The notes beneath the pieces were generated by a model that was not told the origin of the DNA, did no database searches, and worked only from the letters and a program-made list of their open reading frames with translations. Shown here in pieces: positions 2,792 to 17,074 of a stretch of 64,000 bases of DNA (positions are counted from its first letter, which is position 1; each line of letters opens with the position of its first letter). This DNA is from Actinophytocola algeriensis (GTDB lineage Bacteria > Actinomycetota > Actinomycetes > Mycobacteriales > Pseudonocardiaceae). The translations under genes were made by a program, and so were the position numbers. The stretch lies in the NCBI RefSeq assembly GCF_014203735.1, contig NZ_JACHJQ010000002.1:1239224-1303223 (forward strand). The letters run 5' to 3'.

Positions 2792-4340
2792 TTGATCATT
2801 CCTCTGCGACAGAAGGACGACCACGACCAAGGGCTTCTGTTGATCAGTGTGCACGACACCGGCTCTGCCGGTGTGTCCGGGGACCTCACCCGCTTCCGCC
2901 AGGAGCTTTACCGGTGCTTGTCCAGGCGGGGAGATGCGTTGTTCGAGCTGGTCGATGCGGTGTTGTGCGCGGACGGGCCGGTGCGGTCGTTGCCGGAGTT
3001 GTCCCTGGTAGGTGAACACCGTCGCGGACACGGCAGCCTGTATGCGGGCCTGGCGCGTGGCCGGGTGGACGCCGACCGGCTGCGACGTGCTCTGGCGGCT
3101 GGGCCGTTGCCGCGGGCGGCGGATGGCCGGCTGGTGTTGGCGGTCGATGTCACCTGCTGGCTGCGTCCGGAGGCGCATACCTCGCCGAAGCGGATCCTGT
3201 GCCATACCTACGGACGCGGCAAAGACACCCACATCATGGTGCCCGGCTGGCCCTACTCGATCGTCGTGGCGTTGGAGACCGGCCGCAGCTCCTGGACCGC
3301 GCCAGCCCGGCGACCGAGAAATCCTGCTGGTGGCCGACGCGGGCTATGACGGTCCCCGGCTCGCGTTCCTGTTGGCGGACCTGCCAGTGGTCGTGCTGGT
3401 TCGGATGCGCTCGGACCGAGTGCTACGCCGCTCCACGCCAGCGCGCCTGCCGGGCACCATGGGGCGGCCTCGCCGCCACGGCGACGAGTTCGTCTTCGGT
3501 GACCCCGCCACCTGGAGCGAGCCGGACGTGACCACACGTACTGACACCCGGCTTTACGGCCCAGCACTGGCCCGCGCCTGGAACCGGCTGCACCCACGCC
3601 TGACCCACCGCACCGCCTGGACAACCCACCTCGGGAAGCTCCCCATCATCGAGGGAACCGTGATCCGCCTCGAGGTCGACCGGCTGCCATCCGGCGCGAT
3701 CCCGAAACCGGTCTGGCTCTGGCATTCCGCCACCGATCTCGATGCCACGGTGGTTGACCTTCTCTGGCAAGCGTTCCTGCGGCGGTTCGACATCGAGCAC
3801 ACCTTCCGCATGCTCAAACAAACCCTCGGCTGGACCACGCCGAAACTCCGCACGCCCGAGCAGGGCGATCGCTGGACCTGGCTGCTCCTGGCCGCCTACA
3901 CCCAACTCCGTCTCGCCCGCGATCTCACCGCGGACCTACGCCCCCTGGGAGAAACCGCCCGCCCTGGCCGACTGACCCCGGCCCGGGTCCACCGCGGGTT
4001 TCGGCACCTCCGCACAACAATCGGTACACCAGCCAGCGCACCGAAACCCACCCGACCAGGCCCAGGACGCCCCACCGGACAACCCAACCAACGACCAGCC
4101 CCACGACACGACGTCCACATCGCCACCAGCGCCGACACACCGACGACCCGCAGCAGCAAAAACCACGTCCAGCACCCCCCGACCCCGCCGAACACGTTAA
4201 AACTCAAGCTAGTGTTCAGCGATCGGCGGCTGCCCCGACGGGGAACAGGGCGAAGTCGTCGAGGCTCAGTTCGGCGAACAGCTCGGTGTGCGCGGCGCCG
4301 GTCCACGGCCAGACGATCGGCAGTCCGGCCCGGTCGGTGA
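2792..4340 (+). pseudogene. Transposase (NF041680-like DDE family), internally deleted and frameshifted
   Basis: The N-terminal part (frame of 2792-3349) contains RRGDALFELVDAVLCADGPV and VLAVDVTCWLRPEAHTSP. The C-terminal part (another frame, from about 3310) contains EILLVADAGYDGPRLAFLLA, RFDIEHTFRMLKQTLGW and LRTPEQGDRWTWLLLAAYTQ. These blocks are typical of a large actinobacterial transposase group. At the junction, ALETGRSSWT runs almost directly into GDREILLVADAGYD. From memory of the family, roughly 40-50 residues normally lie between these motifs, so a piece of about 130-150 bp appears to be lost together with the reading frame. The second frame also runs past the right inverted repeat into flanking DNA before stopping near 4340. 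The enzyme is almost certainly inactive. Confidence 0.8.
4193..4213 (-). repeat. Right terminal inverted repeat of the IS
   Basis: Read on the minus strand it gives ACTAGCTTGAG followed by TTTTAACGTG. It matches the left repeat with one inserted T. Confidence 0.8.
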
Positions 4341-5682
4341 ACCAGCTCGAGCACGCGACGAAGGTGGTGTTCGGCAAGGCTTCGCGCACCGTGTCGCAGA
4401 ACCGGAGGGTCGCCGCTGTGGTCGGTGCCAGCGCGACCCGGCGCGCACGAATCACGTCCAGAAGCCTGAGCAGATAGCCGACCTCGTCGGCGAGTATGGC
4501 CGGCGCCGGCACCACGTTGACCGGCGCGAAGGGCCCGTTCAACAGGAAGAGGTTCGGCATGCCGGGCAGCGCGACGCCGCGGTACGAGTACACGCCGTCC
4601 GCCCACAGCTCGTCGACGGTCACACCGCTGATGCCCTCGACGCGCATCGGCCGCATGTAGGCGTGGCTGTCGAAACCGGTGGCGAAGACGAGGACGTCCA
4701 GGTCGTGTGCGCGGCCGTCGCCGTCGATCACGCCTGCCGGGGTGATCCGGGTCAGCGGACCGGTCACCGGCGTCACGTTGGGTCGTTGAAGCACCTGGTA
4801 GAAGTGCTCGGACTTCGGGATGCGCCGGCAGCCGACCTCCTCGTCCGGGGTCAGCCGCGCGCGAAGCCCGGGGTCGCGTACCTGGCGGGCCAGCTCGGCG
4901 AGGTACCGGCGCCGCATCCCGTCGCGTTCCGGGCCCGGCGCCAGTCGCCAGCCTTCACCGCCCTCGGCCCGGACCTTCATGGCGCGCAGCCGCCGGTCCC
5001 ACAGCCGCCCGGCTCCGGGCAGCGCGGGCACCATCCGCTCCCACCACGAGATGGCCGGGTTCGGGCGCACCATGATCCACTGCGGTCGACGGATGAAGTG
5101 TGTGACCTCCACGCCGCGCATGCCCAGTTCGGTGACGATCTGAACGCCGCTCGAGCCGGCTCCGATCACTCCGACCCGCCGCCCGTCCAGTTCGACCGAG
5201 TGGTCCCAGCACGCGGAGTGGAACGCCGGCCCGGCGAAACTGTCGCGTCCCGTGATCGACGGCAGGACAGGCACCCGCAGGAAGCCGGTCGCGCTCACCA
5301 CAACGTCCGCGGTGAACGTCCGCCCGTCGGCGGCGTCCAGTACCCAGCGACCGCCGTCGTACCGGGCCGCGCGGATCTCACAACCGAACCGGACGTGCTC
5401 GACGATGCGCCGGCCGCGAGCGAGCCGCACGAGGTAGTCCTGGATCTCCCGGCCCGGGGCGTACCGTCGAGACCAGCGGCGGCCGCGCGCGAACGGGAGC
5501 TCGTACCCGCGCGTGACGACATCGACGTACAGACCGGGGTAGGTGTTGTCCCGCCACGTGCCACCAACCTCGCGGGCTTGCTCGTAGACCGTGTGACAGA
5601 TTCCCCGCCGACGCAGCTCGTCGGCCAGGAACAGTCCCGCGATACCGGCGCCGATGACGGCCACCTCGAAGGGAGGACCCAC
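4216..5682 (-). CDS. Class B flavin monooxygenase (Baeyer-Villiger type)
   Basis: This 488-aa protein has an N-terminal FAD Rossmann motif (VAVIGAGIAGLFLADELRRR, residues about 7-26). It also has GGTWRDNTYPGLYVDV, typical of FMO/BVMO enzymes, and a second nucleotide motif GVIGAGSSGVQ. Just before the second motif, FAGPAFHSACWD fits the Baeyer-Villiger fingerprint FxGxxxHxxxW[P/D]. FATGFDSHAYM lies in the C-terminal half. The family inserts oxygen into ketones or oxidises N/S atoms using NADPH and FAD. The GTG start follows GGAGGGAG at good spacing. It is the last gene of the six-gene minus-strand operon beginning at 10485, 12 nt after the methyltransferase gene. Its 3' end is intact but touches the IS. 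The substrate is unknown. Confidence 0.9.
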   Translation of the reverse strand: MGPPFEVAVIGAGIAGLFLADELRRRGICHTVYEQAREVGGTWRDNTYPGLYVDVVTRGYELPFARGRRWSRRYAPGREIQDYLVRLARGRRIVEHVRFGCEIRAARYDGGRWVLDAADGRTFTADVVVSATGFLRVPVLPSITGRDSFAGPAFHSACWDHSVELDGRRVGVIGAGSSGVQIVTELGMRGVEVTHFIRRPQWIMVRPNPAISWWERMVPALPGAGRLWDRRLRAMKVRAEGGEGWRLAPGPERDGMRRRYLAELARQVRDPGLRARLTPDEEVGCRRIPKSEHFYQVLQRPNVTPVTGPLTRITPAGVIDGDGRAHDLDVLVFATGFDSHAYMRPMRVEGISGVTVDELWADGVYSYRGVALPGMPNLFLLNGPFAPVNVVPAPAILADEVGYLLRLLDVIRARRVALAPTTAATLRFCDTVREALPNTTFVACSSWFTDRAGLPIVWPWTGAAHTELFAELSLDDFALFPVGAAADR

Positions 5683-5694
5683 GTGGCTCCCTCC

Positions 5695-6513
5695 TCAGAC
5701 GGCCCGACGTCCCGCCCACACGACCACCGCCTCGTACCATTCCTCCCCCTGTATCGGCACCACGGTCACCTCGCACGCCTCCAGCCCACGTGTTTCCAGT
5801 GCATCGGCAACGAAATCGGTGGACAGGAACGTGGTGTCATAGCCTTTCTCCGCGATGGCGTCGGGTGTACGCAACCAGTTCGCACCGATCACCGTCCCTC
5901 CTGGAGCGACGCGGGTCGCCGTTTCGTTGATGCTGCGGTGAAAGTGGTCGGGGCCGTCGGCCAGACCGAAACAACCGAACGCGGTGACCAAGTCATAGGT
6001 CGAGCGTGGCACCGCGTCCGGCCACGTCTGGGAGAAGTCGAACACCAGGTAACGCCAGCCAGCATCGCGAAAGCGAGCGAGGTGCCGTTCGTCGCGGCCG
6101 TACATCGCCAAGGCGTCGCGATAGCACCGCGGGACCCGGGATGAACGCACGATGCGATCCAGCACCACCAGTGCTTCGACCGACGCGTCCACCACGGTAA
6201 TCGACGCGACCTCTTCCAAAGCACAGCACCAGAACAGTGTGGACGTTCCCGCGCCGAGATCCAGCCATTCGCCACCCCCGCCCCACCTGTCGAGAGCGGC
6301 GAGGATCTGCTCGGTTCCCATCCCGTGCGCGAGCGGGCCGGAGAAGTTCTTCTGTGCGTACGTGTTGAAGTAGGCCAGGCTGGCGCGGTCGACGTTCAGG
6401 TGCTCCCAGTCCGTGATCTCCCGGAAGCCGGTCTCGTTGGAGAACTCCCGGGTCGACTCGGGTATCCAGCCGGTGACCTCTTCCCTGGTGTACTGGCGAA
6501 CCATGCCTCTCAC
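5695..6513 (-). CDS. SAM-dependent methyltransferase-like protein (NNMT/PNMT-like)
   Basis: This 272-aa class I methyltransferase-fold protein carries motif I WLDLGAGTSTLFWCCALEE at about residues 84-102, followed by an acidic ribose-binding residue (ITVVDAS). TYDLVTAFGCFGLADGPDHF corresponds to the motif IV region. The layout, with an aromatic N-terminal part (YFNTYAQKNFSGPL) before motif I, recalls the nicotinamide/phenylethanolamine N-methyltransferase group, which acts on small amines. That resemblance is by eye only. The start overlaps the stop of the upstream gene (ATGA at 6510-6513), showing translational coupling within the operon. Because an AdoMet decarboxylase-like gene is in the same operon, transfer of an aminopropyl rather than a methyl group is an alternative worth keeping open. 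Confidence 0.8.
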   Translation of the reverse strand: MRGMVRQYTREEVTGWIPESTREFSNETGFREITDWEHLNVDRASLAYFNTYAQKNFSGPLAHGMGTEQILAALDRWGGGGEWLDLGAGTSTLFWCCALEEVASITVVDASVEALVVLDRIVRSSRVPRCYRDALAMYGRDERHLARFRDAGWRYLVFDFSQTWPDAVPRSTYDLVTAFGCFGLADGPDHFHRSINETATRVAPGGTVIGANWLRTPDAIAEKGYDTTFLSTDFVADALETRGLEACEVTVVPIQGEEWYEAVVVWAGRRAV

Positions 6514-7319
6514 TCATTCCCGGGTGCTCGGTTCTCGAGTATGAAGATCATTCGTGGGTCACCGGCCTCGTAGGGCTTGAAGGCGTAGTCGCCGTACAAC
6601 GCGGCGCACCGCAGGCCAGACCGCGCCGCGAGACGCAGGAAACTGTCGCGGTTGTGCCGCCGGTACCGCACCGACGCCCGCCAGCCGCACACACCGGCAC
6701 CCGCCTCGTCGAGCGAGTAGTGGAAGTCGATCGTCACCGTGCCATCGTGGTGGTGACGTTGGCGACGACGGCGTGTGCACACTCCGCCAGCTCCGTCCGT
6801 GACACGGCGCCACTCGTCGACCCAGACATCGTCGGGGACGCGCCTGTCGTAGTAGCCGAGAGCGTAGGGCGAGCCGTCCACACGCGCCGAGAAGTCGGCG
6901 AGATCGACAGCGATGAAGCCATCGTCCTCGAGCCGTCGCGCGAAGCCGCGCAACGCCTGTACGGCTTCGCCGTCGTCGGTCAGGAACTGGAAGCCTTCCC
7001 GGATGACGAAGACCGCGTCGAACCTCTCGGCGAGATCCAGCGCACGCATGTCGGCGACGACAGGCCTGACGCGTGGTCGCGGTGAGGTGCGCGCCAGCTT
7101 TCGCCGGACCAGCGCGATCATGCTTGGCTCGAGGTCGACCGCGGTGACGTGCTTCCCCAGTGCCGCAAGATAAAGCGCACGCGTGCCCGACCCGCACGGC
7201 AGCTCCAGTATGGTGTCGGCGCCGTCCGCGAGCGCCGCCCAGAACGACAGGTCGTTGTCATCCGTGTACTCGACGTCGTAGATCTCCGACCGGCGCGAGT
7301 AGTCGTTGACCACGCTCAT
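6510..7319 (-). CDS. Class I SAM-dependent methyltransferase
   Basis: In this 269-aa protein, motif I is ILELPCGSGTRALYLAALG (about residues 38-56) and the ribose-binding acid is in HVTAVDLEPSMI. Motif IV is FDAVFVIREGFQFL and the post-IV region is GFIAVDLADFSARV. These fit the Methyltransf_25/ubiE-like superfamily. The substrate cannot be read from the sequence. It overlaps both neighbours by 4 bp (ATGA) and so is a translationally coupled middle gene of the radical-SAM operon. Two consecutive methyltransferase genes suggest two transfer steps or a split substrate range. Confidence 0.85.
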   Translation of the reverse strand: MSVVNDYSRRSEIYDVEYTDDNDLSFWAALADGADTILELPCGSGTRALYLAALGKHVTAVDLEPSMIALVRRKLARTSPRPRVRPVVADMRALDLAERFDAVFVIREGFQFLTDDGEAVQALRGFARRLEDDGFIAVDLADFSARVDGSPYALGYYDRRVPDDVWVDEWRRVTDGAGGVCTRRRRQRHHHDGTVTIDFHYSLDEAGAGVCGWRASVRYRRHNRDSFLRLAARSGLRCAALYGDYAFKPYEAGDPRMIFILENRAPGNE

Positions 7320-8431
7320 ATCAGCGACGCCATCCCGGGGGCGCCGGCGAACGACTCCTTGAGGTAGGGGTGGGTGATCCTGCCACCCTCGACGATCTTG
7401 CCTGTGGTGAAGAACGCGTTCTCGCGTTCCGCGTAGATCGCGTCGCCGAGCTCGATCAGGTACGGTGTGACGTTGCGGCTCTTCGCCTGCGAGGCCGTGC
7501 GCGGCACGCGCGAAGGGATCCGGTCCATCTTGTAGTGCAGGACACCGTCCACCTCGTAGACCGGGTCGTCGAACGAGCTGGTGCGATGAAACGTCGGCAT
7601 CCAGCCGACGCCGTCACCGTAGCCACACGTGACGTCCATCAGCAGCGACCCCTTCTTCATCATCGCCAGGTGGCGCTTCTCGATCATCGGCGGCGTGTCC
7701 TCCGTGGCTATCAGGATCGCGCCCATGACGAGATCGGCTTTCCGTAGTTCCTCCTCCAGCACGTCCGCCGAGTTCAGCCGGCACGTGACGGTGGGCCCGA
7801 CGGTGGCCGCGAACTCCCGCAGGCGGGTACGGTCGCGCCCCAGGACCGTGACCGCACATCCCATGGCGGCGGCCGCGCGTACCGCGGCTCCGCCGACCTT
7901 GCCATGACCGATGACCAGCACCCTGGGGTCGTCCGCTCCGGGAACGTGTGCGAGCAGTACGCCTGAGCCGCCGAAATGTGCCTGCAACAGGTAGGCACCC
8001 TGGATGAAGGCGAGCTTGCCGGTGATCTCCATGTCCGATCGCGGCAGTGGCACGACGTGGTCCGGCGTCACGCAGTACTCCAGCGAGTACGCCGTCATGC
8101 CGGACTCGCACATGAGGCGAACCATCTCCACCTCGCCCTCGGCATGGAAGGAGGAAGCCAACGTCAGGCCCGAGCGGAAGTACCGGAAATCCTCCGGCTG
8201 CGGCGTCTTGTACTTCACGACATAGGCCGCACGCCAGACGTCGTCGCGGGACACGACGCTCGCCCCGTTGTCCGCGAACTCGGCGTCAGCTATGCCCAGC
8301 TCGGCACCCGTCTTCGTCTCGACCCACACGTCGAACCCTGCCGCACGGTACGCAGGCACCTCGCTCGGCACGACCATGCATCGCGCTTCGCCGGGGTACC
8401 GCTCACGCGCGAAAGCGATGATCTTGGTCAT
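7316..8431 (-). CDS. Alanine dehydrogenase/PNT-family oxidoreductase, divergent
   Basis: This 371-aa protein has the alanine dehydrogenase/pyridine-nucleotide transhydrogenase layout, with an N-terminal catalytic domain and a Rossmann motif VLVIGHGKVGGAAV at about residue 190. Blocks matching AlaDH include VVKYKTPQPEDF (position of the catalytic Lys region), LASSFHAEGE (catalytic His region), GVLLAHVPG, and VLHYKM...VPRTASQAKSRNVTPYL. The usual N-terminal VPKE..ENRV substrate-binding segment is replaced by AFARERYPGEARCMVV, so the substrate is probably not simple alanine/pyruvate. Relatives include opine-forming and saccharopine-type dehydrogenases, which reductively couple an amine to a 2-oxoacid. 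It overlaps SpeD and the methyltransferase by 4 bp each, placing it in the same pathway. Confidence 0.85.
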   Translation of the reverse strand: MTKIIAFARERYPGEARCMVVPSEVPAYRAAGFDVWVETKTGAELGIADAEFADNGASVVSRDDVWRAAYVVKYKTPQPEDFRYFRSGLTLASSFHAEGEVEMVRLMCESGMTAYSLEYCVTPDHVVPLPRSDMEITGKLAFIQGAYLLQAHFGGSGVLLAHVPGADDPRVLVIGHGKVGGAAVRAAAAMGCAVTVLGRDRTRLREFAATVGPTVTCRLNSADVLEEELRKADLVMGAILIATEDTPPMIEKRHLAMMKKGSLLMDVTCGYGDGVGWMPTFHRTSSFDDPVYEVDGVLHYKMDRIPSRVPRTASQAKSRNVTPYLIELGDAIYAERENAFFTTGKIVEGGRITHPYLKESFAGAPGMASLI

Positions 8432-8889
8432 CGGGCACCCGTCCCGTTCCTCGCGCCCGTCGCCGGTGACCGCCGGACGAACTCCGGATGTGTTTGGGGT
8501 GTCGCGAGAAGGCGCTTGTGCTCACTGATGTCGATACGTCCCGGTTCGAAGATCTGCTGGAACGCCAGCACGCACTTGTAGGGATCCAGCGAACCGCAGA
8601 AGAAGACGTCGACCGCCACCATCTTCTCCTCGTGCCATGTGTTCACGCAGATGTGCGACTCCGCGAGAATGGCGAACCCCGTCACTCCGCCGTCGTCGCC
8701 GAACTTCCTGAAACAGGATTCCAGCAGTGTCGCCTTCGCATACCGGACCGCCAACTCGACGGACTTTCCGACCGCTGCCGCATCGTCGGTGTTCTTCGCG
8801 TCCCACATGTCGATGAAAAGGTGGGTGCCCGCGCTGATCCGGTTATCGCCCATCCGGTGGATCGCACCCTTGGGTTCTACGAGCGTCAT
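8428..8889 (-). CDS. speD-like: S-adenosylmethionine decarboxylase-like proenzyme
   Basis: This 153-aa protein matches the prokaryotic class 1 AdoMet decarboxylase fold. It has AGTHLFIDMWDA near the N-terminus, and the self-cleavage region AILAESHICVNTWHEE, where cleavage between Glu and Ser would create the pyruvoyl cofactor. The catalytic-Cys block is VAVDVFFCGSLDPYKC. The conserved Ser, His and Cys are present, so activity is plausible. In polyamine synthesis the product, decarboxylated AdoMet, donates aminopropyl groups to a spermidine synthase. No spermidine-synthase-like gene is next to it. The setting between a radical-SAM and an AlaDH-like gene suggests a secondary-metabolic use. The RBS GGAGAGAGGGACGT precedes the ATG. 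Confidence 0.88.
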   Translation of the reverse strand: MTLVEPKGAIHRMGDNRISAGTHLFIDMWDAKNTDDAAAVGKSVELAVRYAKATLLESCFRKFGDDGGVTGFAILAESHICVNTWHEEKMVAVDVFFCGSLDPYKCVLAFQQIFEPGRIDISEHKRLLATPQTHPEFVRRSPATGARNGTGAR

Positions 8890-8910
8890 ACGTCCCTCTC
8901 TCCGTCGATC

Positions 8911-10485
8911 TCAGCTCGCCCTTCGACGTCGCGACACGATGTCCGTGGCGGTGATGATGTCCCTGACCTCGCTCATTCCGGGGGTGCTGCCACCGGCGAC
9001 CGGATAGCACTCTGACGACTCGCCGAAGTGGCGCAGCAGCGGCAGCATCGGGCCGCGACCGACCGCCCAGTCCAGGTACCTGTACTCGGGTGCGACAACG
9101 GAGTCCCGAAGTGGGTGCTGGGTCGCCCAGTTCATGGAGATGGCGCCGAACATGTCCTGCCTTCTCCACTCCGCCAGCTCCGTGAAGAGGAGATCTCGTT
9201 CGTAGCGCCCCTCGCCCAGCCCAAACAACAGTGACAGTCCCACCGTGATTCCGGCATCAGCCAGGATGGTCAGCGCCCGGTCGGCGCGCTCCATCCATGT
9301 GCCGTTCTTACCGCCGATGTTCTTGTGGAGCCCGCCGACCACATCCGGCAGCGGGGTCTCCAGCCCCATGAAGAGGTACTCCAAGCCGAGTGCGGACATC
9401 CGGTGTGCGAGGTCCGGGCTGCGCACGATCTGGTCGATCGTCGCCTGACCACCCAGGCGTATCCGCACCGGTTCGGCTTCCATGCACTGCTCGAACTGGC
9501 TGACCAACCTTGCGTTCCAGCCGAGCAGCGTCGAGTCCTCGACGAACGCGCTGGCGTCCGACCCCGGGGCGTGGTCTTCGTCGACGACCCGGCGGGCGCT
9601 CGACAACTGCGCGTGCAGGCGCGTTCCACTGGACCTCATCTGCCGCGGCGCGCCGACCACACTGATCCGCTCGCTGCAGAACGCGCAGTCGTAGATGCAG
9701 CCATAGCCGATATCGCTGAACACGTGCGCGGTGGGCGCCCCGCCGAACACGTCGAACGCCGCGGTGATGCCGAACATGGCGGACGGTGACGGCATGCTGT
9801 GGTAGTCGATGGGAACGTTCCCGCCGGACACCACGGCGACGCTGCCGCCGCTGACGGAGCCGGCGATCCAGGTGCCGGGACAGTCGGTGAGCGCATCGAG
9901 GTGCAGGCGTGCCGACCGCGCGGGCATTCCGCGTTCGTCCAATGAGGACACCAGCTCGCCGAGCCGGGCGATGACGTACTCCCCGTCTCCGGAGACAACG
10001 ACGTCGAATACCTCCTCCGGGATCTCTTCTTCCGCCATCAACCGAAGCGGCGAGGAGACGTGGTGTGCGACCTTCCCCGGCTTTCGCCCGGCATAAACGG
10101 TTTCCGTGGCATGGCGTCCACCGAGAACGATGCACACCGAGTCACCGAGGGCCGCACGCACCATCTCCGCCGTTTCGATGGCGCCCCTCAGGCAGATGGT
10201 CATCGCGCCGATCAGCACGAGGTTCGGTCTGACCCGCACCAGGGCACGCTGCATTCGCTGTCGTGCCTCGGGGAGACTCCAAAGCAGGAGTGTCGTCTCC
10301 CGGCGCTGCTCTCGACCGCCGCCCCAGTTGCTGTCACCCCAGGCGCCCCGGCCCTGCGCGGCGAGCGAGGCCGCGTACCGGCAGGCGTTGTACAAACTGG
10401 CGGGGTCGGAGCTCGACAACGCCTTTTCCCCGACATCACCTTCGATGAATTGCGGCGCGGCACAGGCCACCACCCGCAGTGTCAT
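8911..10485 (-). CDS. Radical SAM protein with N-terminal B12-binding-like domain
   Basis: The radical-SAM cluster motif is GYGCIYDCAFCSE (CX3CX2C) in the middle of a 524-aa protein. It is preceded by a Rossmann-like region (PNLVLIGAMTICLRGAIETA, IVLGGRHATET) resembling the B12-binding domains of cobalamin-type radical SAM enzymes. I do not see the DxHxxG cobalamin ligand motif, so cobalamin use is uncertain. Later segments (MSALGLEYLFMGLETP, LADAGITVGLSLLFGLGE) fit the TIM-barrel half. A longer reading frame starts upstream, but AGGAGG at 10493-10498 best serves the ATG at 10485 (ATG 10491 is too close). It is the first gene of the minus-strand operon, and a shared 33-bp motif lies 82 bp upstream. 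Possible reactions are methylation or carbon-skeleton rearrangement. Confidence 0.88.
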   Translation of the reverse strand: MTLRVVACAAPQFIEGDVGEKALSSSDPASLYNACRYAASLAAQGRGAWGDSNWGGGREQRRETTLLLWSLPEARQRMQRALVRVRPNLVLIGAMTICLRGAIETAEMVRAALGDSVCIVLGGRHATETVYAGRKPGKVAHHVSSPLRLMAEEEIPEEVFDVVVSGDGEYVIARLGELVSSLDERGMPARSARLHLDALTDCPGTWIAGSVSGGSVAVVSGGNVPIDYHSMPSPSAMFGITAAFDVFGGAPTAHVFSDIGYGCIYDCAFCSERISVVGAPRQMRSSGTRLHAQLSSARRVVDEDHAPGSDASAFVEDSTLLGWNARLVSQFEQCMEAEPVRIRLGGQATIDQIVRSPDLAHRMSALGLEYLFMGLETPLPDVVGGLHKNIGGKNGTWMERADRALTILADAGITVGLSLLFGLGEGRYERDLLFTELAEWRRQDMFGAISMNWATQHPLRDSVVAPEYRYLDWAVGRGPMLPLLRHFGESSECYPVAGGSTPGMSEVRDIITATDIVSRRRRAS

Positions 10486-10566
10486 GAGCATTACCTCCTG
10501 AAATGTTGCCGACCCAAGGAAATGGGCGACATCCGGAAATCGCGAAGGTGCCGCGTCCTCGTCATT

Positions 10567-10599
10567 CAGGTCTAACAGCCGGAGGTTTAGTCCGGGTTC
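10567..10599 (-). promoter_or_regulatory. Shared 33-bp operator-like motif, copy 1 (upstream of the radical-SAM operon)
   Basis: On the plus strand it contains TAACAGCCG followed by GGTTTAGTCCGGGTTC. It matches copy 2 at 16748-16780 in 28 of 33 positions without gaps. In the direction of transcription it contains ACTAAAC and, 15 bp on, GTTAGAC, a possible direct repeat. The only two copies I found are both upstream of operons in the SARP locus, so it is a likely binding site of the SARP at 10729 or a shared promoter element. Confidence 0.6.
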
Positions 10600-10728
10600 G
10601 GCCGCGATCCGGTTCTGGTTTCGGGGACGTGTAGGCACAGGTTGGTTTGCCCCACATGGCTGTGGGTATGACCTCGGACAGTGCGTCAAGCTTGATCGAC
10701 AGTCTGCGACGTTCGTCTGGGGGCAGGC

Positions 10729-12525
10729 GTGAACTTCGAGATCCTGGGGCCCTTGCGGGTCGCGGACGGGCACGTACGGGTCAGTGCGAGCAAGCACCGC
10801 ACCCTGTTGGCCCTGTTGCTGTGCGAACACGACCACGTGGTGACCGTCGACCAGCTGGTTGACGAGATCTGGCAGGAGAACCCGCCCCGTTCGGCGGTCA
10901 ACCTGGTCCGTCAGTACATCTCCCACGTACGGAGGAAGCTCGGCTCTTCCGGTGCGTCCGCCACGAGCTCCCGGCCCGAACTAGTCACCTACTCGTCGGG
11001 GTACTCGCTGGATTTGCGTGGAAGCTACCTGGACCGGAACGTGTTCGAGGAGCGGGTCGCTGTCGCCCAGCGGGCGGCGGCCCGCGGCGAGACGGACTCG
11101 TGTGTCGTTGCTGTGACCGAGGCCCTGGACCTGTGGCGTGGACCGGCACTGATCGACGTGTCGTGCGGTCCGCGGACCGTCGCCGAAGCCCGGCGGTTGA
11201 ACGGACGGCGCGCATTCGCCGAGGAGATGCGCATCGAGGCGAAGCTGGCGGTCGGCCGCTACGCCGAGACCGTGGACGAACTCGCGGCGCTCGCCCTGGT
11301 TCACCCCACCCGGGAACGGTTGCGTGAGCACCTGATGCGGACCTTGTACGCACTGGGCCGTCGAGCCGAGGCCCTCGAGGTCTACCAGGAGGGCCGGCGT
11401 GCACTCGTCGACCGGTTGGGCATCGAACCGGGAACCACACTGCGGCGGCTGGAGCAGGAAGTCCTCAACGACAACCTGGCGCTGCGGTCCCGACCAAGAC
11501 AGGAACTGGTGTCGAGACCGCGTCGCAGCGCCATACCACGACAGTTGCCGGCCAGCCACCACGATTTCATCGGCAGGGTCCGGGAAACCGAACACCTTGT
11601 GGACCTGCTGAAGCCTTCGGTGGGCGGTCTGCCGCTCGTGGCGCTGTCCGGACTCGCGGGGATCGGTAAGACCGCCCTCGCCCTGCATGTGGCGCGACGG
11701 GTACGGGACTCGTTTCCCGGCGGCCAGATGTTCGCGCGGCTGAGTGCCACCGACGGCCCGGTGCCGACGGCCAACGCCCTCCTGAGTTTCCTGCGCGCGC
11801 TGGGCGTGAGCCAGTCGGACGTACCACCTGGCCTGTACCAGCGCGCCGAACTGTTCCGCGGCATCACCGCCGACCGTCAGATCCTCGTCGTGCTCGATGA
11901 CGCTGGCAGTGAGTCCCAGGTACGGGCCCTGCTCCCCGGCCCAGGTGCGAGTTCCGTGCTTGTCACCAGCCGCAGAACGCTGACCGGGCTCGACAGTGCC
12001 GTCCACCTCACGTGTGGCCCCCTCGACGCCGACACCGGGCTGGCGATCCTGGGCAACCTCGCAGGGCGGCAGCAGCTGGCGCAGGACCCGAAGAGCAGCA
12101 GCGAACTCGTGCGGTGGTGCCGCGGTCTGCCGGTGGCGTTGTGCGTCATCGGCGCCAAGCTGGCGGCGGAGCGAGGCCTGACCGCCAGGACGCTGCTGGC
12201 CACGCTGTCCGGCAATGGTCAGCTGGACGAACTGCAGCTGGGTGAACTGGATGTCCGCGCCCGGATCGCGTCAAGCCACCGACGACTCGGCGCTGCCGAA
12301 CGTGACCTGCTGGGCCGCCTCGCCGCGAGCGCGCGCCCCGTGGCTGGTGGAGACGATCTCCCCCAGCCCCTCGGCGAGCTGACGCCGTCGGACGAGGCAC
12401 TGCTGGAAGGGCTGGTCGCGAACCACATGGTGGAGGTTCTGCCTTCGCCGGGCACCGGTGCCGGGTACTTCCGGCTGAACTACTTCGTTCGGCTGTTCAT
12501 CGAGCAGCCCCGGACAGGCAGGTGA
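10729..12525 (+). CDS. SARP-family transcriptional activator (AfsR-like, with NB-ARC domain)
   Basis: This 598-aa protein starts with an OmpR-type winged-helix DNA-binding domain (MNFEILGPLRVADGHV to about residue 95). A bacterial transcriptional activation domain follows (ALDLWRGPALIDV, RRAEALEVYQEGRRALVDRL, IEPGTTLRRLEQ; about residues 100-245). The third part is an NB-ARC ATPase with P-loop GLAGIGKTALALHVARRV and QILVVLDDAGSE (about residues 270-450). Typical TPRs are short or absent, as the protein ends soon after the ATPase. The family activates secondary-metabolite operons by binding heptameric direct repeats. The GTG start overlaps no other gene; GGGGGCAGG lies just upstream. The amidotransferase follows directly. 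It diverges from the radical-SAM operon and is its natural candidate regulator. Confidence 0.93.
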   Translation: MNFEILGPLRVADGHVRVSASKHRTLLALLLCEHDHVVTVDQLVDEIWQENPPRSAVNLVRQYISHVRRKLGSSGASATSSRPELVTYSSGYSLDLRGSYLDRNVFEERVAVAQRAAARGETDSCVVAVTEALDLWRGPALIDVSCGPRTVAEARRLNGRRAFAEEMRIEAKLAVGRYAETVDELAALALVHPTRERLREHLMRTLYALGRRAEALEVYQEGRRALVDRLGIEPGTTLRRLEQEVLNDNLALRSRPRQELVSRPRRSAIPRQLPASHHDFIGRVRETEHLVDLLKPSVGGLPLVALSGLAGIGKTALALHVARRVRDSFPGGQMFARLSATDGPVPTANALLSFLRALGVSQSDVPPGLYQRAELFRGITADRQILVVLDDAGSESQVRALLPGPGASSVLVTSRRTLTGLDSAVHLTCGPLDADTGLAILGNLAGRQQLAQDPKSSSELVRWCRGLPVALCVIGAKLAAERGLTARTLLATLSGNGQLDELQLGELDVRARIASSHRRLGAAERDLLGRLAASARPVAGGDDLPQPLGELTPSDEALLEGLVANHMVEVLPSPGTGAGYFRLNYFVRLFIEQPRTGR

Positions 12526-12531
12526 GTGTTG

Positions 12532-14034
12532 GTGTGTGGCATCGTAGCGCTCCACAGCGCCGCCGACCCGGAACTCGGGCCGCAGATGCTGCGCCGGATC
12601 GCCCATCGCGGCCCCGACGACGAGGGCATGGTCCGGACAGACGGCGCGTGGCTAGGGCATCGTCGACTGTCGATTGTGGACATCGAGGGTGGCGCGCAGC
12701 CCTTGACCCATGATGGCCAGTACCTCGTCAGCAACGGCGAGATCTACAACCACCGGGCGCTGCGCGCTGGTCTGACGGTCGACAACGTGGGCACCGGTTC
12801 GGACAACGAGGTCATCCTGCATTCGTTGCTCACTCGCGGAGGTGCCGCGCTGGCGGGCTTGCGCGGCATGTACGCCTTCGCCACGGCAGGAAGCCGGCAC
12901 CCATTCCTCGCCGCACGCGACCCGGTCGGCATCAAACCGCTCTACTGGGCGAGGATCGGCGACACGGTGTTGTTCGCCTCGGAGATGAAGGCGTTCGAGC
13001 GGGTGCATCGCCCGTGGGTGGAGCCTTTTCCACCCGGCCACTACTGGACGCCGTCCTCGGGCCTCGTCCGCTTCGCCCACGTTCTGCCGCCCGACCCGCC
13101 GTCCTCGGCCGCCGGTGACGTCGCGGGGTGCTCCCGGCGGGTCAGAGACGCCCTTGTCGCGAGCGTGGAAATGCAGATGATGGGTGACGTCCCGGTCGGC
13201 GTCCTGCTGTCCGGTGGGCTCGACTCCAGTGTCGTCGCCGCGATCGCCGCACGCTGGTACGCGCGGCGCGGACAGCGGCTGCTGACGTTTTCCGTGGGCA
13301 CCGAGGGCTCGGACGACCTGCGAGCCGCACGCGAGGTAGCCGCCCACCTCGGCACCCGGCATTTCGAACGGGTCTACACGGCGGGGGACGCTGTGGCCGC
13401 CGTCCCGGCGGTCATCCGGGCAGTCGAGCACTATGACCCGGCGCTCATCCACAGTTCTGTGGCCAACTACCTGCTGGCCGAGCTGGCCAGCGAGCATACG
13501 AAGGTCGTGCTCACCGGGGAGGGCTCCGACGAGGTGTTCGCCGGGTACGAGTACCTCCACCGCTTCGCGGGCGACGACGGCCTCCTCCACGCGGAACTCC
13601 AGCGGATCGTCGGCCTGCTTCCCAGCCTCAACCTGCAGCGGTGCGACCGCACCTCGATGGCGTTCGGGCTCGAGGCTCGGGTCCCGTTCCTGGACTCAGG
13701 GCTCATCGCTCTCGCCATGACCACCCCGATCGCTCTGCGCAGGCCGGATTTCGGCGGATGCGAGAAGTTCCTGTTGCGATCGGCGTTCTCCGGCTGGCTG
13801 CCCGACGGTGTGTTGTGGCGGCGCAAAGTCCAGTTCGGCGCGGGCTCCGGCATGTCCGAGGTGCTCATGTCCCGGATGAGTTCGACGGTGTCCGAGGCGG
13901 AGTTCCGCGCGGCGCGTTCGACGGTCGAGCCACGACTGCGCAACCGGGAAGAAATGGCGTACTACCGCCTGTGGCGCGACGCTCTCGACGGCATCAGGAC
14001 ATCCGCGCTCGGTCAGTCCCCCGTCATGTCGTGA
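12532..14034 (+). CDS. asnB-like: Glutamine-dependent asparagine-synthase-like amidotransferase
   Basis: The GTG at 12532 gives a protein starting Met-Cys-Gly-Ile-Val. After Met removal this leaves the N-terminal nucleophilic Cys required by class II glutamine amidotransferases, so I prefer it over the GTG at 12526. The glutaminase half has MLRRIAHRGPDDEG, LGHRRLSIVD and NGEIYNH. The synthetase half has the ATP-pyrophosphatase P-loop VLLSGGLDSSVVAAIAA and LTGEGSDEVFAGYEY. At 500 aa it is somewhat shorter than typical AsnB proteins. In secondary metabolism such enzymes amidate carboxylates of pathway intermediates using Gln and ATP. It begins 6 nt after the SARP stop (12525), so the two are one transcript. 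Confidence 0.92.
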   Translation: MCGIVALHSAADPELGPQMLRRIAHRGPDDEGMVRTDGAWLGHRRLSIVDIEGGAQPLTHDGQYLVSNGEIYNHRALRAGLTVDNVGTGSDNEVILHSLLTRGGAALAGLRGMYAFATAGSRHPFLAARDPVGIKPLYWARIGDTVLFASEMKAFERVHRPWVEPFPPGHYWTPSSGLVRFAHVLPPDPPSSAAGDVAGCSRRVRDALVASVEMQMMGDVPVGVLLSGGLDSSVVAAIAARWYARRGQRLLTFSVGTEGSDDLRAAREVAAHLGTRHFERVYTAGDAVAAVPAVIRAVEHYDPALIHSSVANYLLAELASEHTKVVLTGEGSDEVFAGYEYLHRFAGDDGLLHAELQRIVGLLPSLNLQRCDRTSMAFGLEARVPFLDSGLIALAMTTPIALRRPDFGGCEKFLLRSAFSGWLPDGVLWRRKVQFGAGSGMSEVLMSRMSSTVSEAEFRAARSTVEPRLRNREEMAYYRLWRDALDGIRTSALGQSPVMS

Positions 14035-14052
14035 CACGGGCCAGGGTGTCAC
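14031..14052. terminator. Bidirectional hairpin between convergent genes
   Basis: GTGACAC (14031-14037) and GTGTCAC (14046-14052) form a 7-bp stem with an 8-nt loop. The stem overlaps the stop codons of the converging amidotransferase and MFS genes, which end only 14 nt apart. Confidence 0.5.
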
Positions 14053-15308
14053 CGGGCGGCGTTCTGGATGACATCTCCCCGCGGGGCGAAGAACGCGGCC
14101 ATGACAACGACGACAGCGCCGCCCAGCAGGGTGGCGGTAAGCCCGATCAAGTCGGCGACGAGACCACCGATCACCGGGCCGCAGAGCAGGCCGGCCGCCT
14201 GCGCCCCGACCGCCCTGGCCGAGCCGACCGACGGCTGGTCTGGGTAGAGCCGCGTACCCCAGAGGACTGAGACGTTCACGAGCATGCTGTAGGCGGCGCC
14301 GAACGCGGCCGCGGCGATCAGCACAACCCCGACGCGGCTCGGCGCCAACCCGACCGTCGCGATGGCCACTGCCTCCAGAAGCGCGCACAGCACGAACGTC
14401 CGGGCCGCACCTAGACGCCGGATCACGTCGGCGGTGCCCATCGCCAGCACACTCGCGACTCCGGTCACGCCGAGCAGCACGCGTCCCGCGGTCTGGTCGA
14501 GGCCTGCGTCGCGCACGGTGTCGACAGCGAAGGTCCAGAACGGGGCGCTGCCGAGCCCGACGAGCAGGGCGCCGACGAGCATCGGCGTCACACCGTGGCC
14601 GGGTCGTGGCGCAGGTCGGCGCCGCGGCGGACCGCCCTGTGCCGATGGCTGCACGGTTCGGCCGGGCCCCAGCACGTACACGGCGAACAACGTGCTCGCG
14701 AGGGCGCATGCAGCGAAGCCGAGGTAGGCGCCCCGCCACTCGTCGCCCGCCGCGATGGCGATCGGCGCGGCGACCGCCACCCCCCACCCGGTGCCACAAC
14801 TGATCGTCGCCAGGGTGCGGGCGCGGATCGTCGCGGGCAGCCGGTCGACGGCATCGGCGAACGGGGGTTGTACAAGACCGGCGCTCGCGCCCGCGGTGCC
14901 CACCCCGATCGCCAGGACGACCGGGTCGTGGGCCATGGCGATGATGATCGTCCCGACGACGGCGAGCAGTCCACCGACGACGACCGTCGCCCGTTGACCG
15001 ACGCGGACGACACATCGGCCGACCAGGGTCGTCGTGACGACGTAGGCGGCGTAGGCGAGGGTGCCGATCGCCCCGAGCATGGTCGGGGTGAGCACGAGGT
15101 CGTCCTGGATGTCCGGCAGCAGCAGGCCGTAGCCGTACCGGGCCATGCCGAACGCGGTCGCCACGGCCGCCGATCCGGCGACCGCGAGCGCGACCGCCGA
15201 CGGATGGTCCGGACGGCTGCGTTCGCCGGTGTCGTCACGCGACTCTGCCCGGCTGCGGCCGCCACCTTCTTTCACCGGAACGATCCCGACGCGGGCCGGA
15301 GCGGGCAC
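14049..15308 (-). CDS. MFS transporter
   Basis: This 419-aa membrane protein shows about 12 hydrophobic segments after a charged N-terminal tail of about 35 residues. MARYGYGLLLPDIQDDL, TTTLVGRCVVRVGQRATVVV (the motif-A-like loop between TM2 and TM3) and GLVQPPFADAVDRLP identify the major facilitator superfamily. A Pro/Arg-rich loop in the middle (PPRRRPAPRPG) separates the two six-helix halves. The true start may be internal, because the first 35 residues are unusually polar. It follows the Rieske gene by 109 nt on the same strand. It is the only exporter in this locus, so product efflux or self-resistance is the likely role. Confidence 0.88.
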   Translation of the reverse strand: MPAPARVGIVPVKEGGGRSRAESRDDTGERSRPDHPSAVALAVAGSAAVATAFGMARYGYGLLLPDIQDDLVLTPTMLGAIGTLAYAAYVVTTTLVGRCVVRVGQRATVVVGGLLAVVGTIIIAMAHDPVVLAIGVGTAGASAGLVQPPFADAVDRLPATIRARTLATISCGTGWGVAVAAPIAIAAGDEWRGAYLGFAACALASTLFAVYVLGPGRTVQPSAQGGPPRRRPAPRPGHGVTPMLVGALLVGLGSAPFWTFAVDTVRDAGLDQTAGRVLLGVTGVASVLAMGTADVIRRLGAARTFVLCALLEAVAIATVGLAPSRVGVVLIAAAAFGAAYSMLVNVSVLWGTRLYPDQPSVGSARAVGAQAAGLLCGPVIGGLVADLIGLTATLLGGAVVVVMAAFFAPRGDVIQNAAR

Positions 15309-15417
15309 GCAGCGGCGGTCGCTCCCGGTCCGTCAGCAAGCTGAGTCACGACAGCTGCGTACCCGGTAACGCCCTTGTGCATGCTTTGGCGGAGCATCAC
15401 GAACGGCTGAACAGCGA

Positions 15418-16629
15418 TCAGAGCAGCAGTTTCGACGACGGGTCATTCGTCTCGCCACGGACGCCGGCCCGCAGCCGGGCCACGTACCACTCGTGGAACC
15501 GCATCAACGGTCCCTCCACCAGCGGGGAGAGCGGACCGGGCCGGTATCCGCGGGAGGCGGTCCCGGCGTACGCGCGCTCGCAGAGCAACCAGTCCTGTTC
15601 TGATGTCGAGCGCCACACCGCGGTCAGCGCGTTCGTGTCGGCCAGCGCGGCGTCACGATGCACCAGGAAGGTCACCTCGACGTCGGTGGTACCCACGTCG
15701 ACCGGTGTGATCGCGGTCGTCATGGCGTAGTCGCAGTTGGCGTGGGCCACCAGGAGGTTGGGCAGCGCGACCATGCGCAGACTGCCGGTGTCAGTGCCGG
15801 TCAGGGTGCCCATCACCGGTGCCACCGTGTGCCCGTCGAGAGTCTCGGTGAGGTACCCCTCGCGCAGCGGCACCCGAGCGATCCGGTACCAGGCGCCGTC
15901 GGGGAAGTTGACGTCCTCGGGCGCCAGCCCCTGGGCACGCCACCGCGCACGGGCCGCCGCCAGCACAGCGTCGTAGCCGGCGTCTGTCCGCAGGTCGCCG
16001 TACATTCCGAGCTCGAAGTTGGACCGCAGGAACTCGGGATGGTTGCCGCAGTGGTAGCACTCGCGGCTGTTCTCCACCACCGTCTTCCAGTTGGCCGCGA
16101 CCCGGTACCGTTCCCGCGCGGCGATTCGTGCGTCGGCCAGTCCATGCGGCCGCAGTTGCGGAGCGAGCGCCTCGGCGAACGGCTCGAACGGCGGCGGGTC
16201 GGCGGCGAGGCAAACGAACACCAGTCCTGCGACCTCGCGAACTGCGACCGGGGCCAGCCGGTACTGCTCGGTGGAAAAGCACGGACCCATCTGCCGTGCC
16301 GCGCGCAACCGGCCGTCGAGCCCGTAGACCCAGCGGTGGTAAGGGCAGACAAACGAATGCGTGTTCCCGCGCGGCGCCGAGACGATCCGCGAGCCGCGAT
16401 GTGCGCAGACGTCATGGTGCGCGTGGATCTCGTTGTCGCGCCCGCGCACGACGATTACGCGGTCGCGGCCGATGTCGACGGTGTAGTAATCGCCGGCAGC
16501 GCGCAGCTCGCAGCTGTGCCCTACGAACAGCCAACCGACAGTGAAGACGTGCTCGACGTCGGCGGCGAACACCTCCGGATCGGTGTAGGCGGCTTGTGGT
16601 AGCGACCTGCTCGCGACGTGCTCAAACAT
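15418..16629 (-). CDS. Rieske non-heme iron oxygenase, glycine-betaine-monooxygenase-like
   Basis: In this 403-aa alpha-subunit-type protein, the Rieske [2Fe-2S] ligands are in CAHRGSR and CPYHRWVYG (about residues 75-100). The mononuclear iron site lies in NWKTVVENSRECYHCGNHPE. The ECYHC..HPE arrangement is characteristic of GbcA/stachydrine-demethylase type Rieske enzymes, which oxidise N-methyl groups of quaternary amines, rather than of dihydroxylating dioxygenases. This is family knowledge applied by eye. No reductase gene is adjacent, so electrons must come from elsewhere. A copy of the shared 33-bp motif lies 119 bp upstream of the ATG. In this cluster it may hydroxylate or demethylate an N-alkyl intermediate. 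Confidence 0.9.
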   Translation of the reverse strand: MFEHVASRSLPQAAYTDPEVFAADVEHVFTVGWLFVGHSCELRAAGDYYTVDIGRDRVIVVRGRDNEIHAHHDVCAHRGSRIVSAPRGNTHSFVCPYHRWVYGLDGRLRAARQMGPCFSTEQYRLAPVAVREVAGLVFVCLAADPPPFEPFAEALAPQLRPHGLADARIAARERYRVAANWKTVVENSRECYHCGNHPEFLRSNFELGMYGDLRTDAGYDAVLAAARARWRAQGLAPEDVNFPDGAWYRIARVPLREGYLTETLDGHTVAPVMGTLTGTDTGSLRMVALPNLLVAHANCDYAMTTAITPVDVGTTDVEVTFLVHRDAALADTNALTAVWRSTSEQDWLLCERAYAGTASRGYRPGPLSPLVEGPLMRFHEWYVARLRAGVRGETNDPSSKLLL

Positions 16630-16747
16630 GCAAACTCCGCACGCTCGGTTCAGCGGCGGCAGCGTCGTCGTCCTGCGACACTCCCTGTCACTTCGTGTTT
16701 ACCGTCCCGAACGCCTCGACCTCGCACGGCGAGCCGTTCCGCTCCAT

Positions 16748-16780
16748 CAGGTTTAACAGCCGAACGTTTAGTCTGGATTC
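16748..16780 (-). promoter_or_regulatory. Shared 33-bp operator-like motif, copy 2 (upstream of the Rieske-MFS operon)
   Basis: The plus-strand core is TAACAGCCG followed by CGTTTAGTCTGGATTC. Compared with copy 1 (10567-10599) there are five substitutions in 33 and no gaps. The orientation relative to the regulated gene is the same in both cases, which argues for function rather than chance. Confidence 0.6.
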
Positions 16781-17074
16781 ACCGTCGGGATATTCGGCCG
16801 CGAGCATCCGCTGCCCGACGTCCCAGCAACTCGATCGCGGGGTGGACCACCGTTTGACACTCGGTGAAGCCGCCAACTCAGTTACCTCGAATGAGGCCAG
16901 GAGGTGACGTTGTGGCCGGCGATCAGCAACGGACACCTGATCACGCCCGCGAACAGGGCCGCAGACCATGCTGGCCCCGGCGAGGCGGCCTGCGCCGGCG
17001 CCAACGTCCAGCACAACTGGGTTCTCGTAGGATTATGCCGCCGGTGCGCGGTCCCGGCCTTCGTGCGGTATGGG
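16781..17074. other. Intergenic segment, no supported gene
   Basis: The gap of about 445 nt between the Rieske start (16629) and the DUF2795 stop (17075) contains the motif copy at 16748-16780. Several overlapping short frames lack an RBS and recognisable residues. I see no gene in it. Confidence 0.5.

What the first reader, a model, noticed from the sequence alone, without database searches (positions are those of the whole stretch)
4216..16629. SARP-controlled biosynthetic locus of unknown product combining SpeD-like, radical-SAM, AlaDH-like, Rieske and BVMO enzymes
Six coupled minus-strand genes (radical SAM, AdoMet decarboxylase-like, AlaDH/PNT-like, two methyltransferases, Baeyer-Villiger-type monooxygenase), a SARP with an AsnB-like amidotransferase, and a Rieske oxygenase with an exporter form one compact locus. 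There is no PKS, NRPS or RiPP precursor, so the scaffold is probably a small molecule built from amino-acid or SAM-derived pieces. I do not know a characterised pathway with this enzyme set.
Basis: partly seen in the sequence, partly recalled or inferred. Interest (0 to 1): 0.8.

Follow-up and report, generated by a model that had tools for sequence, protein, structure and literature searches.

The report
Unusual amino-acid-tailoring biosynthetic gene cluster
An actinobacterium carries ten tightly packed, apparently co-controlled genes that look like a pathway for a small, methylated, oxidised amino-acid-like molecule, built around an unusual set of enzymes whose pieces reappear in bean-nodulating Rhizobium and in other actinobacteria, but whose product is not known.

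Summary
Window 4216-16629 carries ten intact genes: a six-gene minus-strand operon (B12-type radical SAM, SpeD-like, AlaDH-like, two methyltransferases, Baeyer-Villiger-type monooxygenase), SARP and AsnB on the plus strand, and an MFS transporter and a Rieske oxygenase. (1) A 34-bp element lies upstream of the six-gene operon and again upstream of the Rieske gene (29/34 identical; best of 1000 shuffles 24; no third copy found in the 9.73-Mb genome), so the parts look like one regulon. (2) SpeD follows rSAM at 11 of 11 Rhizobium loci examined, with an AlaDH stump at 6 of 11. AlaDH-MT2-MT1 plus a SpeD recur in a different eight-gene system at 9 of 11 actinobacterial loci examined. (3) Both shared enzymes are altered at catalytic positions: SpeD His68 is Asn (Ser in the other system) and the AlaDH Asp is Gly. 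Most likely the cluster methylates, decarboxylates and oxidises an amino acid into a small amide or amine; substrate, step order and product are inferred. The whole set was not seen in another genome searched, and no paper found describes it. New variant of a known kind.

The parts
8911..10485 (-). radical SAM enzyme with B12-binding domain, TIGR04434 (rSAM_Pput_1520), first gene of the operon
   Evidence: TIGR04434 559.4 bits, cut-off 550; CxxxCxxC at residues 263-270; AF2 model pLDDT 82, Foldseek top hits TsrM, MgmA, OxsB; AGGAGGT before ATG
8428..8889 (-). SpeD-fold protein (AdoMet_dc) with His68 replaced by Asn
   Evidence: PF02675 1.7e-25, TIGR03330 93.6 bits, cut-off 75.65; Ser63 and Cys83 kept, His68 to Asn
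7316..8431 (-). alanine dehydrogenase/PNT-fold oxidoreductase of a separate clade
   Evidence: PF01262 2e-44 and PF05222 1.7e-22; one side of a 100/100 branch with 8 cluster-type relatives against 6 annotated ald; catalytic Asp to Gly
6510..7319 (-). class-I SAM methyltransferase MT2 (solved relatives include N-methyltransferases)
   Evidence: PF13649 6.1e-17; PDB hits cypemycin N-MT, CcbJ, glycine/sarcosine N-MT
5695..6513 (-). class-I SAM methyltransferase-like MT1, divergent
   Evidence: PF13489 1.7e-5 and PF01234 1.3e-4, both under their cut-offs; no NCBIfam match; no PDB relative by sequence; relatives at 28-33% in nine loci of the eight-gene system
4216..5682 (-). Baeyer-Villiger-type flavin monooxygenase
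   Evidence: PF00743 3.7e-14; both type I BVMO fingerprints (motifs recalled) at residues 40 and 149; best solved relatives cyclohexanone monooxygenases
10729..12525 (+). SARP-type regulator (DNA-binding, BTAD, NB-ARC), 598 aa
   Evidence: PF03704 3e-41, PF00931 2.1e-11, PF00486 2.3e-10
12532..14034 (+). AsnB-type glutamine amidotransferase/synthetase
   Evidence: TIGR01536 375.9 bits, cut-off 267.1; Cys2 and SGGLDS present
14049..15308 (-). MFS transporter, putative exporter
   Evidence: PF07690 1.3e-21
15418..16629 (-). Rieske oxygenase alpha subunit of the stachydrine demethylase / glycine-betaine monooxygenase type (type of the PDB chains partly recalled)
   Evidence: PDB 3vca, 4qup, 3n0q at 1e-84 to 1e-86; GbcA model 342.6 bits, under its cut-off of 670; CxH...CxxH
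10566..10599 (-). 34-bp element, copy 1, in the rSAM-SARP divergent region, about 80 bp upstream of the rSAM start
   Evidence: 29/34 identical to copy 2; best of 1000 dinucleotide shuffles 24; only two matches in the window and genome at up to 3 mismatches
16747..16780 (-). 34-bp element, copy 2, about 117 bp upstream of the Rieske gene

Best explanation
A self-contained specialised-metabolite cluster controlled by its SARP. Shown: ten intact genes, 4-nt coupling inside the operon, an element shared by the two minus-strand promoter regions, and conservation of the sub-modules rSAM-SpeD(-AlaDH) and AlaDH-MT2-MT1 plus SpeD in other genomes. Inferred: a TsrM-like B12 radical SAM enzyme C-methylates (or otherwise rebuilds) a free amino acid; the altered SpeD protein removes its carboxylate using a pyruvoyl group made without His68; the altered AlaDH-fold enzyme, which keeps the Lys/His pair that handles the 2-keto/2-amino acid (role recalled) but has lost the alanine-dehydrogenase Asp, does an imine-forming or imine-reducing step (possibly joining an amine to a keto acid, as saccharopine dehydrogenase and carboxyethylornithine synthase do; this comparison is recalled); MT2 and MT1 methylate, probably on nitrogen; the BVMO and the stachydrine-demethylase-like Rieske enzyme oxidise late; AsnB amidates a carboxylate; the MFS protein exports the product. 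The order of steps is not known.
For: Families and motifs. Fold of the rSAM closest to B12 radical SAM enzymes such as TsrM and OxsB. 34-bp element. Rhizobium: SpeD follows rSAM at 11 of 11 loci and an AlaDH N-terminal stump follows SpeD at 6 of 11; neither was found at 6 of 6 other loci of rSAM relatives. AlaDH-type, MT2, MT1 in the same order, with a SpeD further down, at 9 of 11 actinobacterial loci, partial at 2. Cluster-type AlaDH proteins lie on one side of a branch with 100/100 support. Position 68 of SpeD: His in 14 of 14 other SpeDs read, whose fetched loci (about 3.3 kb) show no other cluster protein; Asn in the window and the 10 Rhizobium loci read across it; Ser in 9 of 9 loci of the eight-gene system.
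Against: No substrate or product is shown. No ferredoxin or reductase for the Rieske enzyme was recognised among the ten genes. SpeD still passes NCBI's AdoMet decarboxylase cut-off, and three spermine-synthase-family matches exist elsewhere in the genome, so a dcSAM role is not excluded. One search found no second SpeD in the own genome at E 1e-8, but ordinary SpeDs of relatives score only 1e-9 to 1e-11 there, so one could be missed. AsnB passes the general asparagine synthase cut-off. The link to the eight-gene system is weakest for MT2: as a query the window's MT2 hits only 2 of its 11 loci (E 2e-7 and 8e-4), while AlaDH hits 11, MT1 9 and SpeD 9. The Rhizobium copies are close kin and partly decayed. 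SARP binding to the element is not tested, and its spacing is not the classic 11-bp heptamer pattern (recalled).
Confidence: 0.55

Rival explanations
1. SpeD makes decarboxylated SAM, and one of the two 'methyltransferases' uses it to transfer an aminopropyl group, so the product is an aminopropylated (polyamine-like) compound.
For: SpeD passes TIGR03330 (93.6 against 75.65 bits); Ser63 and Cys83 are kept; MT1 is divergent and matches no NCBIfam model; three PF01564 matches occur elsewhere in the genome.
Against: His68 is lost in all cluster-type copies read; neither MT1 nor MT2 matches the spermidine synthase family at E 0.001; MT2 resembles N-methyltransferases.
Confidence: 0.2
2. The SpeD protein is not cleaved and is no decarboxylase; it is a retired fold that binds a SAM-like or amino-acid ligand and acts as partner or scaffold of the radical SAM or AlaDH enzyme.
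For: His68, described as essential for self-processing and also involved in catalysis (PMC10407285, section 7), is Asn or Ser in every cluster-type copy read and His in all 14 other copies read.
Against: Ser63 and Cys83 and the surrounding ESH...C block stay conserved, which is hard to explain without cleavage. The structure prediction failed, so it adds nothing.
Confidence: 0.15
3. Two or three independent units lie side by side by chance: an amino-acid operon, a SARP-AsnB pair, and a Rieske-MFS catabolic pair.
For: Only parts of the set recur elsewhere; relatives of Rieske, MFS, AsnB, BVMO and SARP were not detected in the fetched loci of relatives, whose flanks are limited. A transposase ORF flanks the locus.
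Against: The 34-bp element joins the operon and the Rieske promoter region, with no further copy found in the genome; the compact packing.
Confidence: 0.1

Closest known systems
TIGR04434 (rSAM_Pput_1520), B12-binding/radical SAM family; the model's description gives no function
   Same: The window protein passes the curated cut-off (559.4 against 550); 44-61% identity to Rhizobium, Salinarimonas and Paraburkholderia relatives and 35-39% to Pseudomonas and SAR324 relatives
   Different: The Rhizobium copy scores 542.5, just under the cut-off, the Salinarimonas one 566. Relatives outside Rhizobium have other neighbours: a Cys/Met PLP enzyme in Paraburkholderia, B3/4 domain + methyltransferase-like in Pseudomonas, class-V aminotransferase in SAR324, DUF364 in Salinarimonas
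TsrM-type cobalamin radical SAM methylase
   Same: Top Foldseek hits of the model (6wte, E 3.7e-12)
   Different: About 13% identity, TM about 0.45, rmsd over 8 A; substrate unknown
Class 1b SpeD (AdoMet decarboxylase) and its arginine/ornithine decarboxylase offshoots (PMC10407285)
   Same: Fold family, Ser63, Cys83
   Different: His68 is Asn; sits with AlaDH, methyltransferases and a B12 radical SAM gene
Alanine dehydrogenase
   Same: Full-length homology, Lys and His kept
   Different: Separate clade, Asp to Gly, Asn of VAN[MI]P lost; misses the TIGR00518 cut-off
   Same: AlaDH-MT2-MT1 order and an altered SpeD
   Different: Has X (class-I aminoacyl-tRNA-synthetase-like by eye), an ASCH-like and an HTH-like protein (by eye) and an M20 peptidase; no rSAM, BVMO, Rieske, AsnB, MFS or SARP relative of the window detected
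Stachydrine demethylase / glycine-betaine monooxygenase Rieske oxygenases
   Same: Nearest solved relatives (3vca, 4qup; stachydrine is recalled, 4qup is titled monoxygenase; demethylase)
   Different: Under the GbcA equivalog cut-off (342.6 against 670); biosynthetic-type context

Membership tests
TIGR04434 B12 radical SAM | bit score over the curated cut-off of 550 | tested here: met
   559.4; 560.4 in the genome scan
TIGR04434 B12 radical SAM | CxxxCxxC cluster motif and B12-radical SAM fold | tested here: met
   C263/267/270, invariant in 9 of 9 aligned proteins; Foldseek. Cobalamin binding itself not tested
AdoMet decarboxylase (SpeD) | TIGR03330 cut-off | tested here: met
   93.6 against 75.65; the eight-gene system's SpeD of L052 scores 71.2, under it
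AdoMet decarboxylase (SpeD) | processing residues Ser63, His68, Cys83 | tested here: not met
   Ser63 and Cys83 present, His68 is Asn
AdoMet decarboxylase (SpeD) | decarboxylates SAM | not testable with these tools
   needs an assay
Alanine dehydrogenase | TIGR00518 cut-off 391.85 | tested here: not met
   210.6
Alanine dehydrogenase | Lys, His and Asp of the active site (roles recalled) | tested here: not met
   Lys and His kept, Asp replaced by Gly in 9 of 9 cluster-type sequences aligned; Asp in 6 of 6 annotated ald aligned
Type I Baeyer-Villiger monooxygenase | FxGxxxHxxxW[PD] and [AG]GxWxxxx[FY]P[GM]xxxD (recalled) | tested here: met
   FAGPAFHSACWD and GGTWRDNTYPGLYVD
Asparagine synthetase-type amidotransferase | Cys2 nucleophile and SGGxDS ATP loop (recalled), TIGR01536 cut-off | tested here: met
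   375.9 against 267.1; VCGIV and SGGLDS
SARP regulator | BTAD with an N-terminal DNA-binding domain | tested here: met
   PF03704 and PF00486
SARP regulator | binds repeats at target promoters | tested here: inconclusive
   a shared 34-bp element exists; binding not tested
Glycine betaine monooxygenase GbcA | equivalog cut-off 670 | tested here: not met
   342.6

The most novel reading that the evidence does not exclude
The core is a previously undescribed amino-acid-tailoring module, used in at least two different pathways, in which a SpeD-fold enzyme that has dropped His68 and an AlaDH-fold enzyme that has dropped its Asp act as a pair on one methylated amino acid (decarboxylation joined to imine chemistry). 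That would be a new enzymatic route to substituted amines and a new way of making, or doing without, the pyruvoyl cofactor.
Probability: 0.3. Interest if true: 0.75.

Novelty: new variant of a known kind. Interest (0 to 1): 0.58.

Why it matters
If right, the locus points to a small-molecule class that searches keyed on PKS, NRPS or RiPP genes would miss, and gives two enzyme families with changed catalytic residues that can be assayed at once. The Rhizobium copies suggest that part of the same chemistry passed through bean-symbiosis plasmids, and the eight-gene actinobacterial system gives independent genomes in which to test the shared step.

Tried and rejected
Considered and set aside: plain polyamine synthesis (no spermidine synthase match among the ten), alanine catabolism (AlaDH cut-off and residues), RiPP (no precursor was sought, so a short unlisted peptide is not excluded), and a match to a described cluster (paper searches gave no description; only open-licence PMC papers are held, and of the listed papers only PMC10407285 was opened; no cluster collection was available). 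The SpeD structure prediction (pLDDT 45) is unusable, probably because the alignment was shallow. The viral-contig scan gave one short match, not followed. The X protein of the other system has no significant family or PDB hit. The promoter/terminator scan was uninformative. Plasmid searches: MT1 no match; Rieske and BVMO many matches, top rows 39.7% and 51.2%, none opened.

Limits: the genome-contig scan used two peptide patterns only, so absence there is weak, and records very near our own genome may be left out; the genome search samples of large groups are partial (1,988 genomes over all searches, counted by the tool); the AlaDH profile A2 includes the window itself; only 4 of the 9 Rhizobium plasmid hits were opened (L024-L027), and the Rhizobium copies are close kin (L028 and L029 have the same match positions and contig length), not independent events; the Streptomyces plasmid hit (26.9%) was not opened; some genes of L053 and L054 appear in pieces.


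Full report
What is there. The ten genes of 4216-16629 are intact and biased like coding sequence. The minus-strand operon runs rSAM (8911-10485), SpeD (8428-8889), AlaDH-type (7316-8431), MT2 (6510-7319), MT1 (5695-6513), BVMO (4216-5682); three middle junctions overlap by 4 nt. On the plus strand SARP (10729-12525) is followed 6 nt later by AsnB (12532-14034). MFS (14049-15308) and Rieske (15418-16629) lie on the minus strand with a 109-nt gap between them. Flanks are a DDE transposase ORF, a partial glycosyltransferase match and RecQ. The region between RecQ and 64000 was not analysed beyond ORF listing, composition and the pattern searches. The genome has 48 BTAD matches, so a SARP as such is not remarkable.

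Co-regulation. Reading the intergenic regions showed a common stretch, TCAGGTYTAACAGCCGRASGTTTAGTCYGGRTTC, at 10566-10599 and 16747-16780, with 29 of 34 identical. In 1000 pairs of dinucleotide shuffles of the two regions the best 34-base match was 24 (mean 19.6); comparisons with the MFS-Rieske intergenic region and with reversed strands gave 18-20. The degenerate pattern matches only these two places in the window and in the 9,733,683-base assembly at up to 3 mismatches, with no match to the reversed control pattern. The left half alone, at 2 mismatches, also matches at 54237 and 60391. The pattern was built from the two copies, so their zero mismatches are by construction; the informative results are the shuffle comparison and the lack of a third copy. 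Both copies have the same orientation towards minus-strand genes. That the SARP is the binder is inferred from its position.

Conservation of the pair rSAM-SpeD. tblastn against plasmids found nine Rhizobium plasmids and one Streptomyces plasmid (26.9%) with the rSAM. Four of the nine were opened, and the genome-contig scan gave 13 loci, 7 of them Rhizobium. At all 11 Rhizobium loci examined (L024-L033, L037) SpeD (65% identity) follows rSAM (59-62%), within 0.1 kb or after about 1.4 kb, and at 6 of 11 the first 49 residues of the AlaDH-type protein follow SpeD. At the 6 other loci of rSAM relatives (Salinarimonas, two Paraburkholderia, two Pseudomonas, SAR324) neither was found; the rSAM has other neighbours there, several of them amino-acid enzymes. 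In p42d the rSAM match is split between frames and SpeD carries an in-frame stop, so the Rhizobium set is at least partly decaying. The rSAM family is rare: 1 of 396 genomes sampled from the phylum, which was our own; 1 of 6 of the genus, again our own; 2 of 297 of the order of Salinarimonas. In the window's order 14 of 397 genomes matched the SpeD at E 1e-8: our own at 344.7 bits and 13 others at 38-44 bits.

Conservation of AlaDH-MT2-MT1 with SpeD. The best AlaDH relatives in the window's own family (5 of 297 genomes at E 1e-50, own included) have an MT1 relative next to them in 4 of 4 other genomes and an MT2 relative in 1 of the short loci first fetched. The longer stretches show an eight-gene system: AlaDH-type, MT2, MT1, X, SpeD, and divergently an ASCH-like protein, an HTH-like protein (both named by eye) and an M20 peptidase. 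Relatives of all eight were detectable at 9 of 11 loci examined (L051-L054, L058, L059, L072, L073, L076; some in pieces in L053 and L054) and only part at L074 and L075. With the window's own proteins as queries AlaDH hits 11 of 11 loci, MT1 9, SpeD 9, MT2 only 2 (E 2e-7, 8e-4), and the other six none at E 1e-3, so MT2 is tied to the window mainly by its place between AlaDH and MT1. With a profile of the AlaDH-type protein, 3 of 394 class-wide genomes (own included) and 6 of 190 genomes of the order of G1161 (two of them seen before) matched at E 1e-70. One partial locus (L074) lies on a contig with the length and coordinates of the Streptosporangium sp. NBC_01495 plasmid, which suggests that its family is Streptosporangiaceae.

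Altered catalytic residues. PMC10407285 (section 7, read) states that Ser63, His68 and Cys83 of the Thermotoga enzyme are essential for self-processing. In 14 of 14 SpeDs read here from other genomes, whose fetched loci of about 3.3 kb show none of the other cluster proteins, position 68 is His; it is Asn in the window and in the 10 Rhizobium loci that could be read across it, and Ser in 9 of 9 loci of the eight-gene system, two of them from one genome. Ser63 and Cys83 are kept. That paper also says that a Pro of the central region is completely conserved in true AdoMet decarboxylases; I could not see the figure, so I do not say which Pro, though the window has His where the others read have Pro after the Trp/Tyr; the eight-gene copies keep that Pro. 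The AlaDH-type protein keeps the Lys and His of alanine dehydrogenase in 9 of 9 sequences aligned but has Gly in place of the Asp in 9 of 9; 6 of 6 annotated ald keep Asp (residue roles recalled). The tree puts the 9 cluster-type proteins on one side of a branch with 100/100 support; it is unrooted, the window sits on a long branch (1.17), and the 6 ald were picked from one plasmid search.

The rSAM. The AF2 model from nine sequences has pLDDT 82 and pTM 0.86. Foldseek ranks TsrM, MgmA, OxsB and AprD4 on top. TsrM and OxsB are titled cobalamin enzymes; MgmA as a B12 enzyme is recalled; AprD4 is a radical SAM dehydratase. Identities are 12-15%, TM normalised to the query 0.44-0.51, rmsd 7-11 A, so the domain make-up is supported, not the reaction. 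phmmer against the PDB gave nothing at E 0.1.

Reading. The strongest statement the data bear is that this is one co-controlled biosynthetic-type locus, assembled from a conserved amino-acid-type module plus oxidative and amidating enzymes. The chemistry proposed in Best explanation is inference from family knowledge. The rival in which SpeD feeds decarboxylated SAM to an aminopropyl transfer stays open, since SpeD passes the family cut-off and spermine-synthase-family proteins exist elsewhere in the genome. No paper found describes the set; the searches cover only open-licence PMC papers, and of the papers listed only PMC10407285 was opened (passages, section 7).

Noticed in passing
L051, L052, L053, L054, L058, L059, L072, L073, L076: A conserved eight-gene actinobacterial system: ASCH-like, HTH-like and M20 peptidase genes divergent from AlaDH-type, MT2, MT1, X and SpeD. 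X has HxGT- and K(L)SK-like motifs and a zinc-ribbon-like stretch by eye (class-I aminoacyl-tRNA-synthetase-like) but no significant Pfam, NCBIfam or PDB match.
   Followed up: partly
L078-L081: Relatives of X (27-31%) occur on 12 plasmid records; 4 were opened. In Amycolatopsis and Streptomyces an annotated ASCH protein follows it, in Macrococcus an ASCH-like one by eye after two ATP-grasp genes and X, in Pantoea it lies between a methyltransferase and a TIGR00730 gene.
   Followed up: partly
L024 15001-18538; L025 14995-17086: On the Rhizobium symbiotic plasmids opened the rSAM-SpeD pair lies near nif genes (nifH or nifQ) and, in L025/L026, before a P450/SDR/isoprenoid gene set. In L028 the AlaDH stump is followed by a reverse-transcriptase-like frame (by eye).
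   Followed up: partly
L034, L035, L036, L038, L039, L040: Relatives of the TIGR04434 radical SAM gene have different neighbours in different bacteria, several of amino-acid type: Cys/Met PLP enzyme, B3/4 domain, class-V aminotransferase, DUF364.
   Followed up: partly
L072 and L076: One genome (G1655) carries two copies of the eight-gene system on different contigs, with the same AlaDH match score.
   Followed up: no
window 16904-17812: ORF with a partial glycosyltransferase family 2 match at its C-terminal end, just beyond the cluster.
   Followed up: no
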